IMG/VR virus record: IMGVR_UViG_3300021170_000084
Location: 1-20,355 of that record
DNA length: 20,355 nt
Source of the DNA: a virus
Direction: 5' to 3' (one strand)
This document shows positions 9,811 to 19,824 of the stretch, one piece after another (the stretch's first letter is position 1; each line of letters opens with the position of its first letter). A program made the translations under genes and the position numbers. The notes beneath the pieces were generated by a model. That model was not told the origin of the DNA. It made no database searches and saw only the letters and a program-made list of their open reading frames with translations.

Positions 9811-9992
9811 TTCTCTGTTCCTTTCTGCCGCTCCGCGACTCGCTCTAGGATGGCGGGTGGGGCGAGGGCGAGAATGCGGTCCTTTAGGCCTAGATTGCCC
9901 GGATGAGATGGTCTATCAGAGAAGTCGTGAGCTAATTCAGCCGCAGCTTTTATGGCATCTGCAAACCCGCGATCATATTCACTGTTTTGCAT
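9807..9992 (-). CDS. Small helical phage protein
   Basis: 61 aa from ATG 9992 with GAGG four bases upstream. It contains YDRGFADAIKAAAELAHD (6-23), a helix pattern seen in many short phage proteins, then a polar loop and a second helix (ILERVAERQKG). It overlaps the end of the HNH ORF by 14 bases and hands over to the next tiny ORF by ATGA. Function unknown. Confidence 0.7.
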   Translation of the reverse strand: MQNSEYDRGFADAIKAAAELAHDFSDRPSHPGNLGLKDRILALAPPAILERVAERQKGTEK

Positions 9993-10479
9993 TTAACCTC
10001 GCCTGTCCCGCCTCTCTTTTCTTTTTCCGCCACCGCTGGCATCTGGCCCTACGGCATATCCGACAAATTCTTACCCGCTTTCCATATGAACCGATGGCTG
10101 TAGTATCGAATGGATGACCGTTCGCGCAGGTTTTCTTGCGGGCCAAATTTGCAATAGGAGACGTGCCACGCAGAATATTCACTGCCCCTGTGACTACTTC
10201 TAAATGGTTCGGATTAATGCAAGACCTGTTACGACAAAGGTGATCCGGCTCCAATCCTTTCGGTATTGCATACTTGAGAAGTTCATGTGCAAACGCGTGA
10301 GCTGGACGGTGACGCCGAGACCCTACGAAGAATCTTCCGTACCCTTTACATAGAGCACCCTTCCACAGCCAGCACGGTCCCAGTTCTGGGCGCAACGCTG
10401 GAATCGGCCCGTTAAAATCAACCTTGCTCCAAAAGCGGTAGTGCAAGTTTTCTAGCGCTGTCTTTTGACGGGGTGTCAT
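9979..10479 (-). CDS. HNH endonuclease (HNH_3 type)
   Basis: 166 aa from ATG 10479 with GGGAG seven bases upstream, overlapping the previous stop. The order RFWSKVD (15-21), CWLWKGA (36-42), GYGRF (46-50), PDHLCRNRSCINPNHLEVVT (78-97) and N-x-x-RG (101-105) is that of HNH_3 homing endonucleases. The catalytic set is likely D79/H80 with N91/H92 and N101. A C-terminal zinc-knuckle-like part (CANGHPFD, CRICRRARC) follows. These enzymes cut DNA and spread as selfish genes in phage genomes. It lies between small genes and overlaps both. Confidence 0.88.
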   Translation of the reverse strand: MTPRQKTALENLHYRFWSKVDFNGPIPALRPELGPCWLWKGALCKGYGRFFVGSRRHRPAHAFAHELLKYAIPKGLEPDHLCRNRSCINPNHLEVVTGAVNILRGTSPIANLARKKTCANGHPFDTTAIGSYGKRVRICRICRRARCQRWRKKKREAGQARLNAKQ

Positions 10480-14093: not shown

Positions 14094-14258
14094 TCAGGCA
14101 GTGCCAACTCGTTTCCCACTCTTCCAAGCCGTTCTTTTTCTCAGCTCCTCAGCCCTGGCGGCCGCTGGACCTGTCCTCGATTCACGCCAGGCGGCTTGCG
14201 GGCTAATATGGTTCTCGCGCTTTAGAGCTTCCAGCCGTTCTCGCTCAGGAGCGGTCAT
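14094..14258 (-). CDS. Small basic helical protein
   Basis: 54 aa. ATG 14258 overlaps the LAGLIDADG stop as ATGA, with AAAGAG just upstream. The sequence is one long charged helix (PERERLEALKRENHISPQ, then AARAEELRKRTAWK) with a basic end. It could bind nucleic acid. No family recognised. Confidence 0.6.
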   Translation of the reverse strand: MTAPERERLEALKRENHISPQAAWRESRTGPAAARAEELRKRTAWKSGKRVGTA

Positions 14259-14743
14259 AACTCTTTCAGGGAATATTGAATCGGCGGTGGAACGTACTGG
14301 CGAATACCGATTCCTAACTCAAATCTTGATTTCTTTGGTGCGCCGGCGTGCCATCCCTTTCGCATATTGTTTGGAGGCTTGCCTAATGGGCGAAATGCAT
14401 ACTGCATTAAGGCCTTAAGTGCTTGTGTTCTTTTTTCATCGGAAAGAAATGGCCAGATAGGCTTGAGAAAAGTAATGCATTTGTCCCATCCATACACACG
14501 CAGTTTCCAGATCGTCCTCGACGGACGCATCTTGCCTTCTTGCGGTTTGCCTATTCTCACAACCTCGTGAAATCTATTCAGGGTGCGCGGGTTGACCTGG
14601 CTGATAGAAACTTCAACGCTGTAATGGTCCCTATAAGCCCGATAGAAAGTGCATCCCTCGCCATCGAAAAAGCCAGCAGCCCAAGCTCTTTCTAAGTTTC
14701 GGCGATTGGGTTGTACTCGTTCGGTTTCATGTTGAATGTCCAA
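14255..14743 (-). CDS. LAGLIDADG-type homing endonuclease
   Basis: 162 aa. The start is TTG 14743, supported by a perfect AGGAGG (14751-14756) seven bases upstream. Residues 20-30 (AWAAGFFDGEG) are the LAGLIDADG motif with acid residues D27 and E29. Later strands (YSVEVSISQ, TIWKLRVYGWDKCITFL) and a helix with LKALMQYA fit the fold. One motif means it would act as a dimer. It is free-standing, not in an intron, and overlaps the DUF6745-like gene by 52 bases and the next gene by ATGA. Confidence 0.85.
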   Translation of the reverse strand: MDIQHETERVQPNRRNLERAWAAGFFDGEGCTFYRAYRDHYSVEVSISQVNPRTLNRFHEVVRIGKPQEGKMRPSRTIWKLRVYGWDKCITFLKPIWPFLSDEKRTQALKALMQYAFRPLGKPPNNMRKGWHAGAPKKSRFELGIGIRQYVPPPIQYSLKEL

Positions 14744-15945
14744 GAAATTGCCTCCTGCACATTGTTTATCTGTGGCGGAATTCTCAAAAAATACATGCGC
14801 CCCGTAGAAGGATCGGTCACCCGCACGGCCCGCAAAACTCGTTCAGGATCTCCGGGCAAATCGACAGAGAACAAAATTCCACGATCATGCTTGTGAATCT
14901 CTTTGGCTTTAGCATCCGCGATGAAGCGGTCCATGCCAACGCGCTCAATCATCACGCGACGGATTTCGGCGTTTTCCTCGGCCAAGATTTCTTTTGCGGT
15001 GATGGTTTCAGGTTGTTCGATGATTCGCTGCGGAACAATTACGCCGTGCCACGCCCAAATACCCCACTTGTCGCTGTAGCCACAGGCTTGGCCCTTGTCG
15101 GAATGTAGCCGTCCTTGCGCATCAACTTCGACAATTGTGTGTCGATCAGAAACAAACACAATCCCGTCGTACGGAAACCACCAATGCAGATTTCTTGATT
15201 GCTCAAGCCATAGATCGAGAAGCTTTTCATCTTCAGGCGAGTACTCGACTCCAATCTCGGATGCGAATTTATAGAACACTTCCCAGCAGCACCAATGCGC
15301 TCCCGCGAAGCGGTTGCCGAGCTGCGAGTCGAGCTGCGAGCGGAGCTGCGAGTAGAGCTGCGAGTAGAGCTGCGAGTCGAGCTGCGAGCCGAGCTGCGAG
15401 CGGAGCTGCGAGTAGAGCTGCGAGTAGAGCTGCGAGTAGAGCTGCGAGCGGAGCTGCGAGCGGAGCTGCGAGTAGAGCTGCGAGTAGAGCTGCGAGTAGA
15501 GCTGCGAGTCGAGCTGCGAGCCGAGCTGCGAGCGGAGCTGCGAGTAGAGCTGCGAGTAGAGCTGCGAGTAGAGCTGCGAGCGGAGCTGCGAGCGGAGCTG
15601 CGAGTAGAGCTGCGAGTAGAGCTGCGAGCCGAGCTGCGAGTCGAGCTGCGAGCCGAGCTGCGAGCCGAGCTGCGAGCCGAGCTGCGAGCGGAGCTGCGAG
15701 TAGAGCTGCGAGTCCTTAGCCAGACATTTCAAAGCCCCCCAAGCTAGTACGCAGATCATCGGCGAACTGAAATAAAAAATTGTCGGCTTCGGTTTTCCGA
15801 TGCGGCCGTAGAATTCGCCAATAATTTTCTCAGCCGCAGATTTGTCGATAGGCTGGGTGCTGCGTCCAATTCCCAGCCACTCCTCGTAAACCTCGGCAAG
15901 CCGCAACTCTTGCCGAGGCGTCATCTTTGTTATTTTCTTTGACAT
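14692..15945 (-). CDS. DUF6745-like protein with X-S-Q-L repeat array
   Basis: 417 aa from ATG 15945 (GAGG five bases upstream). Residues 1-77 are a mixed helical region. Residues 78-209 are 33 tandem copies of the four-residue unit X-S-Q-L, where X is only Tyr, Arg, Gly or Asp. Residues 210-417 match my recollection of DUF6745 proteins: WCCWEVFYKFASEIG, RLHSDKGQA, WGIWAWHGVIVP, AEENAEIRRVMIERVG and a closing PSTGRMYFLRIP. Related proteins with D-Q-x-R/W type four-residue repeats exist in actinobacteria, but no function is known to me. A period of four would put Leu along one face of a helix. It forms a pair with the His-rich gene before it. Phage role unknown. Confidence 0.85.
   Translation of the reverse strand: MSKKITKMTPRQELRLAEVYEEWLGIGRSTQPIDKSAAEKIIGEFYGRIGKPKPTIFYFSSPMICVLAWGALKCLAKDSQLYSQLRSQLGSQLGSQLGSQLDSQLGSQLYSQLYSQLRSQLRSQLYSQLYSQLYSQLRSQLGSQLDSQLYSQLYSQLYSQLRSQLRSQLYSQLYSQLYSQLRSQLGSQLDSQLYSQLYSQLRSQLDSQLGNRFAGAHWCCWEVFYKFASEIGVEYSPEDEKLLDLWLEQSRNLHWWFPYDGIVFVSDRHTIVEVDAQGRLHSDKGQACGYSDKWGIWAWHGVIVPQRIIEQPETITAKEILAEENAEIRRVMIERVGMDRFIADAKAKEIHKHDRGILFSVDLPGDPERVLRAVRVTDPSTGRMYFLRIPPQINNVQEAISWTFNMKPNEYNPIAET
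15319..15714. repeat. 33 x 12-bp tandem array
   Basis: Thirty-three units of 12 bp. Ten bases (GAGCTGCGAG on the plus strand) are identical in every unit; only two vary, and only as ta, cg, cc or tc. In minus-strand codons these give Tyr (TAC), Arg (CGC), Gly (GGC) and Asp (GAC). A higher-order 11-unit (132-bp) block is repeated almost exactly: units 11-21 and 22-32 share the order R R Y Y Y R G D Y Y, differing only in the last unit. Confidence 0.98.
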
Positions 15946-15952
15946 TTAGACC

Positions 15953-16261
15953 TCAGTCCGCGACGTTCCGGATCGCCTCCGGGCTGTACTCGCGTTGACG
16001 GATTACTTCATAATCCCCGGTTGGCAGAAACAGAGTGTTGTGTTCTTCATGAATGATCGACACGCCACCTTCCGCCGTGACCGAGAGGTACATCTTGTCG
16101 CCTACTTCGAGCACTTCCCCGGCCTCAACGTCTGCCAGCCGGTGGATGTGCCCCGTTGCCTCGCCTTCGAGAATGTGACCGTTTATGCGCTTCTTGAAGT
16201 CACACTCCGGAATGGTGTCGATCTTTCGGAACAAAACGTCGCCCTGCCTCCAAGTTTTCAT
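15953..16261 (-). CDS. Conserved small protein paired with DUF6745 gene
   Basis: 102 aa from ATG 16261 with a perfect GGAG site. Motifs in order are RQGDVLF (5-11), GEATGHIHR (33-41), a YLSVT strand, HEEH (71-74), LPTGDYEV and QREYSPEAIRNVAD (89-102). The several His residues may bind a metal. I associate proteins with this ending (a 'REYSPEAIR' tail) with genes next to DUF6745 proteins, but I cannot name a function. Eight bases separate its stop from the next start, so the two are likely made together. Confidence 0.8.
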   Translation of the reverse strand: MKTWRQGDVLFRKIDTIPECDFKKRINGHILEGEATGHIHRLADVEAGEVLEVGDKMYLSVTAEGGVSIIHEEHNTLFLPTGDYEVIRQREYSPEAIRNVAD

Positions 16262-17990: not shown

Positions 17991-18188
17991 TTACTGTTGG
18001 CCCCAAGCCATCACGGCCAGCCATACCGCCGCGCCAAAAATCAACGCAAAAAACAAGGTGAGCCCAAGCGCCTTCCGCAATCGTCGCCTCTTGTCGAGTT
18101 TGTATTCCCGGCGCGCGTGTGCGTGCATCGCCTGCGCAATAAACAGGCGCTCCTGTTCTGCTTCACCGTTCCAGGATTCGCTTCTCAT
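17991..18188 (-). CDS. Small membrane protein (paralogue A)
   Basis: 65 aa from ATG 18188, with GGAG eight bases upstream. The N-terminal half is a charged helix ([19 protein letters not shown]). The C-terminal half is one membrane segment ([21 protein letters not shown]), preceded by an RRRLRK positive patch, so an N-in orientation is expected. The arrangement and the '[13 protein letters not shown]' helix match the protein at 19824-19997. The start overlaps the HNH ORF end by 26 bases. It may be a membrane-anchored regulator or holin-like; the latter is not supported by position. Confidence 0.75.
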
Positions 18189-18945
18189 AACACTCGCTCC
18201 GCTTACGTGCTTTCATTCCCATTCCCCGCTTGCGCTTATTTGTCGCTTGCTGTTCCCTCGTGGCCCATCGGCAGTTACTCGGTTCGTAATTGCCGTCATT
18301 GTTTATTCTGTCGATTGAGAATTCAGAGATCTGCCCATGTCTGCCTTCCGGACGCGGCCCCATGTCCTCGTAGAAAGCTTCAAAACTCTTGGTCCATCGC
18401 TCACAAACTGAAATCCCGCGACCGCCGTAATCTTCGTAGCGGGAGTCATTTCTGTTGTGGCACCTGGCACGCATGGCTTGCCACGCTTTATACTCACTGG
18501 AATGAGTCATCCGATGCGTACTATGAGCTTCATTAGAAACTTCGCGTTGTAGACATCCACAACTTTTCGATAATCCACTACGCAAGCTGCATCCATTTAT
18601 ATTCTTATCTTTGCCGCAATCACATTTGCACAGCCAAGTAATTGTGTTGTGACGTGTTCTTCCAGATTCGCGAATGACAAGCAGTCGTCCAAACCTTTTC
18701 CCCGTAATATCAATTTTAGGCGACACTCTGCGGATCACCCTACAAGCTTCTCGTTGTAGGCATCCGCAACTTCTGGTGCGTCCTCGACGCAAGTTAGTTC
18801 CAATTATTTCCCTTTCGGTCCCGCAATCGCATCTGCATAGCCAATACCAACGCTCCGACTTGACTGTCAGTGGGCGAACGGCCAACAGCCGTCCAAATCT
18901 CTTGCCGGTAATGTCAATCCTCTGACACACCTTGCGGCTATTCAT
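18163..18945 (-). CDS. HNH-type endonuclease with doubled zinc finger
   Basis: 260 aa from ATG 18945 (GGAG eight bases upstream; ATGA overlap with the previous stop). Residues 8-65 and 78-135 are two copies of a zinc-finger module: [12 protein letters not shown], then WLCRCDCG or WLCKCDCG, then SCGCLQRE. The C-terminal part has [14 protein letters not shown] (151-164), [12 protein letters not shown] (173-184), FYEDMGPRP (191-199) and a final [20 protein letters not shown] (210-229) nuclease motif. This pattern is common in phage homing-type endonucleases, but the usual form has one finger. Short direct repeats flank the ORF. It overlaps the next gene's start. Confidence 0.85.
18191..18201. 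repeat. Direct repeat, downstream copy, flanking HNH ORF
   Basis: CACTCGCTCCG (plus strand) at 18191-18201 is an exact match to 18948-18958. Both copies contain the ribosome site (GGAG) of the gene that follows. The two copies bracket the HNH ORF at 18163-18945. Confidence 0.9.
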
Positions 18946-19178: not shown

Positions 19179-19351
19179 TACGCCGCCTCCATCGCGTCTT
19201 CTCTGGCGATTTCGATACATGATTCATGGCCGTACTCCATGGGATCATCGTCGCTAAGCTCGGCCACTAGTTCACCCGCCCTTATTGCATTTCCGCAGTA
19301 GCTGCAAAACTCGCCGTTCTCGAAAGATGGCGCGCGGAAGAAAGGTTGCAT
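19178..19351 (-). CDS. Small treble-clef/zinc-binding protein
   Basis: 57 aa from ATG 19351 with GGAGG seven bases upstream and a stop that overlaps the next start as TAATG. Residues 16-19 (CSYC) and a later HESC (42-45) give a Cys-x2-Cys / His-x2-Cys zinc site. Between them lies an acidic strand (LVAELSDDDP). The C-terminal helix is acidic. The pattern is like small phage PARP-type or treble-clef zinc proteins. It is overlapped by the tail of the HNH ORF, so part of that tail is likely a by-product. Confidence 0.75.
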   Translation of the reverse strand: MQPFFRAPSFENGEFCSYCGNAIRAGELVAELSDDDPMEYGHESCIEIAREDAMEAA

Positions 19352-19824
19352 TTAGAATCCTCCAATGATTTCCAGCGACTACGAAATTCTCTGGCGTGAG
19401 GGTGCTTTCTTTTGTAATAAGCGCGCGTCCTGTTCCTTACGCATGCCAGACACGCACGCCATCCGGTTTTAGGGTTAACCCAAAGGTTTTCACCGGATAA
19501 TGGATGACCATGCATGCACGCAACTTTCCGTGCGTTCACAGCCGTTATGGAATTACCCCTCATGTTATTAGTTCTCGCGGTTACGGCTTCCAAGTGATCA
19601 GGGTTTACGCACAAACGATTGCTGCACAGGTGATCAAGCTGAAGATCCTTTGGAATAGGACCTTTATGCAATTCATAGCTGAAGCGATGGACACGCACCT
19701 TTCTCAATGCGATCTGGATGCTTCCGTATCCACTGACAAATTTATGGCCAGTCCAATTCCAGCAACCGGAGGTTTTCTCCACGTAGCGCCAAAATCGATA
19801 TAGCGGAGTGCCTTTGCGTGACAT
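19282..19824 (-). CDS. HNH endonuclease (HNH_3 type)
   Basis: 180 aa from ATG 19824 with GGAGG upstream, in a TAATG overlap. The order RFWRYVE (10-16), CWNWTG (21-26), SGYGSIQ (31-37), VHRFSYELHKGPIP (45-58), LDHLCSNRLCVNPDHLEAVT (63-82) and N-x-M-RG (87-90) fits the HNH_3 family. Catalytic residues are likely D64/H65, N74/H77 and N86 or N87. A zinc-knuckle part (CMHGHPLS, CLAC) follows. The last 30 or so residues run out of frame across the next gene's ribosome site and start, suggesting the ORF extends past its original end. Confidence 0.87.
   Translation of the reverse strand: MSRKGTPLYRFWRYVEKTSGCWNWTGHKFVSGYGSIQIALRKVRVHRFSYELHKGPIPKDLQLDHLCSNRLCVNPDHLEAVTARTNNMRGNSITAVNARKVACMHGHPLSGENLWVNPKTGWRACLACVRNRTRAYYKRKHPHAREFRSRWKSLEDSKCNLSSARHLSRTASFAATAEMQ
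19356..19365. repeat. Direct repeat, downstream copy, at HNH ORF
   Basis: AATCCTCCAA at 19356-19365 equals 19828-19837. Each copy is the ribosome site of the gene after it, and a nearby TAA is also shared. Confidence 0.8.

What the first reader, a model, noticed from the sequence alone, without database searches (positions are those of the whole stretch)
15319..15714. 33-unit 12-bp array with only two variable bases per unit
Ten of 12 bases never change, including synonymous sites, while two bases take just four states that encode Tyr, Arg, Gly or Asp. An 11-unit block is repeated nearly exactly. This points to recent expansion by recombination or slippage, with a restricted choice at the variable residue. 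The protein would carry a 132-residue X-S-Q-L rod or solenoid whose surface may be a recognition code.
Basis: partly seen in the sequence, partly recalled or inferred. Interest (0 to 1): 0.72.

Follow-up and report, generated by a model that had tools for sequence, protein, structure and literature searches.

The report
Rewritable four-residue repeats in phage protein
A phage gene carries 33 near-identical four-residue repeats that differ at one residue only; dozens of related phages rewrite the same segment quickly while keeping the same small set of residue types, much like an unrelated mycobacteriophage protein whose repeat number tunes it against bacterial antiviral defence.

Summary
Window 15319-15714 holds 33 exact 12-bp units on the minus strand, encoding X-S-Q-L with X = Tyr, Arg, Gly or Asp. 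They lie inside a 417-residue phage protein whose C-terminus is Pfam DUF6745 (E=7e-42). The array is one of a family: 69 deduplicated DUF6745 arrays of 10 or more units sit at the same place, with different core codons and order. Variation is confined to X (and often residue 2); four-fold synonymous sites are nearly invariant. Basic, acidic and aromatic residues recur in almost every array through different codons, which indicates selection at the protein level. Mycobacterium abscessus prophages with essentially identical flanks carry 20, 47 and 63 units in different order. Cellular relatives without DNA repeats can keep the period of four. Some lake phages carry the array as separate small genes beside an array-free DUF6745 gene. 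A small beta-rich partner gene is adjacent in 72 of 80 assessable cases. The nearest known case, Tweety gp54, has non-homologous flanks and the same layout, and is reported to be a counter-defence protein tuned by repeat number. I propose that this protein works in the same way (not shown). The recognition-code idea has no support here.

The parts
14692..15945 (-). 417-aa phage protein: N-terminal domain, tetrapeptide array, DUF6745 C-terminal domain
   Evidence: ORF; Pfam DUF6745 E=6.8e-42; AlphaFold2 pLDDT about 90 for residues 10-70 and 220-290
15319..15714 (-). 33-unit, 12-bp array encoding (Y/R/G/D)-S-Q-L, residues 78-209
15343..15618 (-). units 9-31: a 12-unit block repeated exactly with offset 11 units (units 9-20 at 15475-15618 and units 20-31 at 15343-15486)
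   Evidence: none of 2000 shuffles reach it
15715..15945 (-). conserved N-terminal domain upstream of the array, residues 1-77
   Evidence: conserved in relatives; confident AlphaFold2 fold
14695..15237 (-). DUF6745 domain, residues 237-417
15953..16261 (-). adjacent small 'QGDV' gene (102 aa, PHROG 27831), the conserved partner of DUF6745; predicted all-beta
   Evidence: PHROG E=1.3e-11; near 72 of 80 assessable DUF6745 ORFs; AlphaFold2 pLDDT 86

Best explanation
This is an accessory phage protein in which a flexible or helical tetrapeptide segment joins two conserved domains. The segment is expanded, shortened and reordered by recombination or replication slippage between identical 12-bp units. 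Selection keeps the period of four with a hydrophobic fourth residue, and keeps a mixture of aromatic, basic, glycine and acidic residues at the variable places. I propose that, as in mycobacteriophage Tweety gp54, the array is a quickly adjustable part that sets spacing or binding specificity towards a changing host or prophage defence factor, probably together with the adjacent small QGDV protein. Shown here: the array, its turnover, the residue alphabet, the ancestral period of four, the partner gene and its accessory status. Inferred: counter-defence role, physical interaction with the partner, and the molecular target.
For: DUF6745 domain. 69 deduplicated arrays at the same position with core codons fixed within each array and different between arrays; mean diversity per base 0.617 at base 1, 0.204 at base 2 and 0.307 at base 5, against 0.020 at four-fold sites, 93% of which are invariant. 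In 62 arrays, basic residues occur in 62, acidic in 61 and aromatic in 58. Where residue 2 is Ser, acid sits at X (21 of 23); elsewhere acid sits at residue 2 in 39 of 39 and at X in only 7 of 39. M. abscessus prophages: 500 bp upstream 100% and 560 bp downstream 99.8-100% identical, arrays of 47, 20 and 63 units sharing only the end units. L027 and L040: flanks 98.2-98.6%, 20 against 33 units. Period-4 peak in the array-free cellular linkers of Nostoc and Hwanghaeella. Split version in L126 and relatives. Partner gene. Module missing from sister M. abscessus prophages that share the neighbouring genes. Precedent: Tweety gp54 repeat-number mutants escape the Phrann and MichelleMyBell prophage defences (PMC9262239, PMC8549241).
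Against: No functional datum exists for any DUF6745 protein; no held paper mentions the name. Tweety gp54 is not homologous in its flanks, so the function is argued by analogy only. DUF6745 also occurs in bacteria, with the partner gene and next to STM4011-4015 clusters, where a counter-defence role is not obvious. Five lake contigs share an unchanged array. Assembly of such repeats is error-prone.
Confidence: 0.42

Rival explanations
1. Composition-constrained scaffold: the array is a multivalent low-complexity or helical spacer (aromatic and Arg 'stickers', Gly/Ser/Gln spacers) that self-associates or holds the two domains apart; only overall composition and period matter, and order drifts neutrally through unit slippage.
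For: Order is essentially free while composition is kept; positive and negative charge per unit correlate (r=0.44); the array is modelled with very low confidence; some phage members have no array (L036, L048).
Against: Strict period of four kept even where the DNA is not repetitive suggests a defined structure; separate multi-copy array genes are hard to explain as a spacer.
Confidence: 0.3
2. Escape variation: the array is itself what a host defence sensor recognises, and it varies to avoid recognition.
For: Fast turnover with constant flanks; variation limited to one or two positions per unit.
Against: An escape target would rather be lost, and the module is readily absent from sister prophages; retention of the same residue classes argues for a positive function.
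Confidence: 0.12
3. Recognition code: each unit reads one element (for example a nucleotide) of an ordered target, as in TALE or PUF repeats.
For: Four states in the window; one or two variable residues in an otherwise fixed unit.
Against: No mapping of the four letters to bases matches the rest of the window better than shuffles (22 of 33 against 20-22); most other arrays use three residues at X and two at residue 2 rather than four states; order changes freely in prophages of one species.
Confidence: 0.06
4. Ordinary slippage product or assembly artefact without function.
For: Metagenomic short-read contig; many arrays lie at contig ends.
Against: Variation at X with none at four-fold sites, and the same residue classes reached by different codons in many lineages; isolate prophages show it too.
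Confidence: 0.1

Closest known systems
Mycobacteriophage Tweety gp54 (with Che8 gp57, PMC gp51)
   Same: 12-bp unit and tetrapeptide array between conserved N- and C-terminal flanks; variation limited to a few first and second codon bases; unit number and composition differ between phages with near-identical flanks; gene absent from some relatives; non-structural region of a temperate phage (PMC2884959)
   Different: Core is Ala-Ala-(Gly/Trp/Gln)-(Ser/Tyr), with no hydrophobic fourth residue; flanks show no significant similarity to DUF6745, its N-terminal domain or the QGDV partner
DUF6745 (PF20530) proteins of Streptomyces, Deinococcus and Nostoc plasmids and Microcystis phage LMM01
   Same: Same C-terminal domain (shortened in the Deinococcus copy) and, in Streptomyces and Deinococcus, the same small partner gene
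   Different: The three cellular copies read here have no 12-bp array; the linker is short or non-repetitive
Bordetella phage BMP-1 bbp36 variable region 2
   Same: Tandem repeat of variable copy number in a dispensable phage gene (as described in PMC2884959)
   Different: 24-bp element; sequence not compared here
Diversity-generating retroelements
   Same: Targeted variability in a phage protein
   Different: No reverse transcriptase found in the window or five relatives; only a few states per site, shuffled as whole units

Membership tests
DUF6745 (PF20530) | Match to the Pfam profile above its gathering score | tested here: met
   143.5 bits against 27; residues 237-417
DUF6745 (PF20530) | Known biochemical function | not testable with these tools
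   None described; no held paper contains the name
Tweety gp54-type counter-defence protein | 12-bp/tetrapeptide array between conserved N and C parts | tested here: met
Tweety gp54-type counter-defence protein | Homologous flanking domains | tested here: not met
   No significant HMM match of gp54 to the DUF6745 or N-terminal profile, nor of its neighbours to the QGDV profile
Tweety gp54-type counter-defence protein | Array length and order differ between phages with near-identical flanks | tested here: met
   M. abscessus prophages and L027/L040
Tweety gp54-type counter-defence protein | Repeat-number mutants overcome a prophage defence | not testable with these tools
   Reported for Tweety (PMC9262239); no data for this family
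Diversity-generating retroelement variable protein | Reverse transcriptase nearby | tested here: not met
   No PF00078 match in the window or in five related contigs, some of them fragments
TALE/PUF-like coded repeat protein | Repeat letters correspond to an ordered target | tested here: inconclusive
   Own window searched only; no match above shuffles

The most novel reading that the evidence does not exclude
A general, independently invented way for phages to build quickly adjustable binding proteins: a period-four rod whose outward residues come from a fixed alphabet (aromatic, basic, glycine, acidic) and are reshuffled as 12-bp cassettes, either inside a carrier protein (DUF6745, Tweety gp54) or as a set of separate small array proteins beside an array-free carrier, to match changing host or prophage defences.
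Probability: 0.22. Interest if true: 0.88.

Novelty: new variant of a known kind. Interest (0 to 1): 0.64.

Why it matters
The only tetrapeptide-array phage protein with a reported phenotype that I found, Tweety gp54, has been treated as an oddity of mycobacteriophages. Finding the same layout on unrelated domains in phages from many metagenomes, with an alphabet of residue types reached through different codons, turns it into a class that can be tested. If arrays tune counter-defence, phages hold a fast, heritable adjustment dial without a dedicated mutagenesis enzyme. The M. abscessus prophages and the split lake phages are natural test sets.

Tried and rejected
Recognition code against own genome: no match above shuffles. 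Diversity-generating retroelement: no reverse transcriptase. Known defence families: PADLOC gave only low-complexity matches of the array region. Fold of the DUF6745 model: no PDB match with E<=0.001 by Foldseek, VIA-align Z up to 3.1; BFVD found only other DUF6745 and uncharacterised phage proteins. QGDV partner fold: no PDB match with E<=0.001, VIA-align Z up to 2.8. Sequence against the PDB: nothing below E 0.024. A low-complexity protein query against the phage collection found nothing, as expected with the filter on. Genomes of Pseudomonadota: only 3 of 299 carry the family. Standalone non-array small genes in L126, L197, L198 and L207 showed no significant period of four. Antisense open frames over the array are a trivial result of a 12-bp unit without stops.

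Full report
WHAT IS THERE. The array at 15319-15714 is exact: 33 units of 12 bp, read on the minus strand as NNC TCG CAG CTC, giving X-S-Q-L with X = Tyr 14, Arg 8, Gly 6, Asp 5. It is residues 78-209 of a 417-residue ORF. The window is a 20-kb virus record with a terminase, P22-like portal and coat proteins, and an Erf-type annealing protein. Units 9-20 and 20-31 are identical (offset 11 units; longest block 12 against a shuffle mean of 4.3, 0 of 2000 shuffles reach it), so a multi-unit duplication has happened.

THE CARRIER. Residues 237-417 match Pfam DUF6745 at 143.5 bits (cut-off 27). AlphaFold2 gives confident N- and C-terminal folds and low confidence (about 40-47) for the array, which is therefore of unknown structure. 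Structure searches gave no function.

RELATIVES. Scans of viral contigs with the protein, with a family alignment and with single members and one DNA pattern scan brought in about a hundred distinct DUF6745 loci. 79 of 110 deduplicated entries carry an array between the same two domains. Each array has its own core: SQL, DQL/GQL, ASV/DSV, SSL, DSL/ASL. Within an array the codons of the core are identical; between arrays they differ (Ser AGC or TCG, Leu CTC, TTG or CTG, Val GTC or GTG). This is what rapid homogenisation of units within each array plus selection on the protein would give.

SELECTION AT THE VARIABLE RESIDUE. Over 69 arrays of 10 or more units the mean diversity per base is 0.617 at base 1, 0.204 at base 2 and 0.307 at base 5, but between 0.003 and 0.066 elsewhere and 0.020 at four-fold degenerate sites, 93% of which are invariant. 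If X varied neutrally, synonymous sites should vary at least as much. X is mainly Gly, Arg, Trp, Asp, Tyr and Glu. The same classes are reached through different codons: Trp TGG or Tyr TAC; Arg AGG, CGG or CGC; Glu GAG or Asp GAC. In 62 arrays of 15 or more units, basic residues occur in all, acidic in 61 and aromatic in 58. If residue 2 is Ser, acid is at X (21 of 23); otherwise acid is at residue 2 (39 of 39) and at X in only 7 of 39. The arrays are not phylogenetically independent, so I give no formal p-value.

TURNOVER. Three M. abscessus prophages identical over 500 bp upstream and 99.8-100% over 560 bp downstream have 47, 20 and 63 units; a fourth is cut at a contig end. Two of them (47 and 20 units) share the first six and last four units; the interior differs. 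Strain genomes in the source study of prophiGD102-1 were sequenced with MiSeq and in some cases Nanopore reads (PMC8092301), so this is not only a metagenome effect, although assembly error is not excluded for each. L027 and L040 (flanks 98.2-98.6%) have 20 and 33 units in different order. In contrast, five lake contigs are identical over 2.1 kb including arrays, and a sixth has lost one cassette. Change is fast relative to point mutation but not in every generation.

THE PERIOD OF FOUR IS OLDER THAN THE DNA REPEAT. In an unbiased sliding scan, the array-free DUF6745 proteins of Nostoc (residues 70-109) and Hwanghaeella (164-203) have their strongest period-4.0 hydrophobic signal in this linker (0 of 500 shuffles reach it); the Streptomyces protein does not. 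So the tetrad probably reflects a structure, and the phage DNA arrays look like expansions of it.

SPLIT FORM. In L126 and about a dozen related loci, several identical over the region, the DUF6745 gene has no array, and one to six separate small ORFs of the form MK(E/Q)IN(S/I)QL-(XSQL)n lie near it, each with its own order. Array and DUF6745 therefore occur both fused and side by side, which suggests that they act together.

PARTNER AND ACCESSORY STATUS. A gene of about 100-125 residues with conserved QGDV, GH-H and H--H motifs (window 15953-16261, PHROG 27831) lies within 1.5 kb on the same strand of 72 of 80 assessable DUF6745 ORFs, including Streptomyces, Deinococcus and Hwanghaeella. It is predicted as an all-beta protein (pLDDT 86) with no clear PDB relative. 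In prophiGD102-1 the pair lies between replication and regulatory genes; sister prophages such as prophiGD22-1 have the following gene directly after the replication gene block, without the pair.

MECHANISM. The only similar protein with a reported phenotype that I found is Tweety gp54: 12-bp units coding AA(G/W/Q)(S/Y), 48, 26 or 15 copies in Tweety, Che8 and PMC, absent from Llij, and thought to show selection for variation (PMC2884959). Mutants with more or fewer repeats overcome the Phrann gp29/gp30 or MichelleMyBell prophage defences (reviews PMC9262239 and PMC8549241; the primary paper was not held). Its flanks are unrelated to DUF6745. I therefore infer convergence on one design: two fixed domains and a slippage-prone period-four segment whose length and surface can be tuned. 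Counter-defence for DUF6745 is an inference by analogy (0.42). A composition-only scaffold is the main rival (0.3).

LIMITS. Array counts in metagenomic contigs may be wrong; no expression or functional data exist; the array structure is unknown; the search pulled more members of a few subfamilies than of others.

Noticed in passing
L126 2685-7908 (-), L185-L196: Clusters of one to six standalone tetrapeptide-array genes beside an array-free DUF6745 gene in lake phages; cassettes differ in number and order between relatives.
   Followed up: yes
L207 3706-8066 (+): A 340-kb phage contig has more than a dozen small (about 55-70 aa) similar-looking but diverged ORFs around its DUF6745 and QGDV genes, possibly a non-repetitive form of the split system.
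   Followed up: partly
L054 1-4658, L055 6345-11468: Bacterial DUF6745 genes in Streptomyces and Deinococcus lie next to STM4011-STM4015 family genes (radical SAM proteins and others).
   Followed up: no
L055 5359-6366 (+): The Deinococcus DUF6745 protein has a leucine-rich-repeat-like N-terminal half in place of the phage N-terminal domain and array.
   Followed up: no
window 9979-10479, 14255-14743, 18163-18945, 19282-19824 (-): Several HNH-like endonuclease ORFs scattered through the window, one directly downstream of the array gene; only 14255-14743 was tested (PHROG 5046, HNH endonuclease), the others judged by eye.
   Followed up: no
L063 775-2139 (+): A Pseudomonadota genome (G293) carries a 29-unit array with mainly Arg/Trp at X and Asp/Gly at residue 2, perhaps in a prophage.
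   Followed up: no
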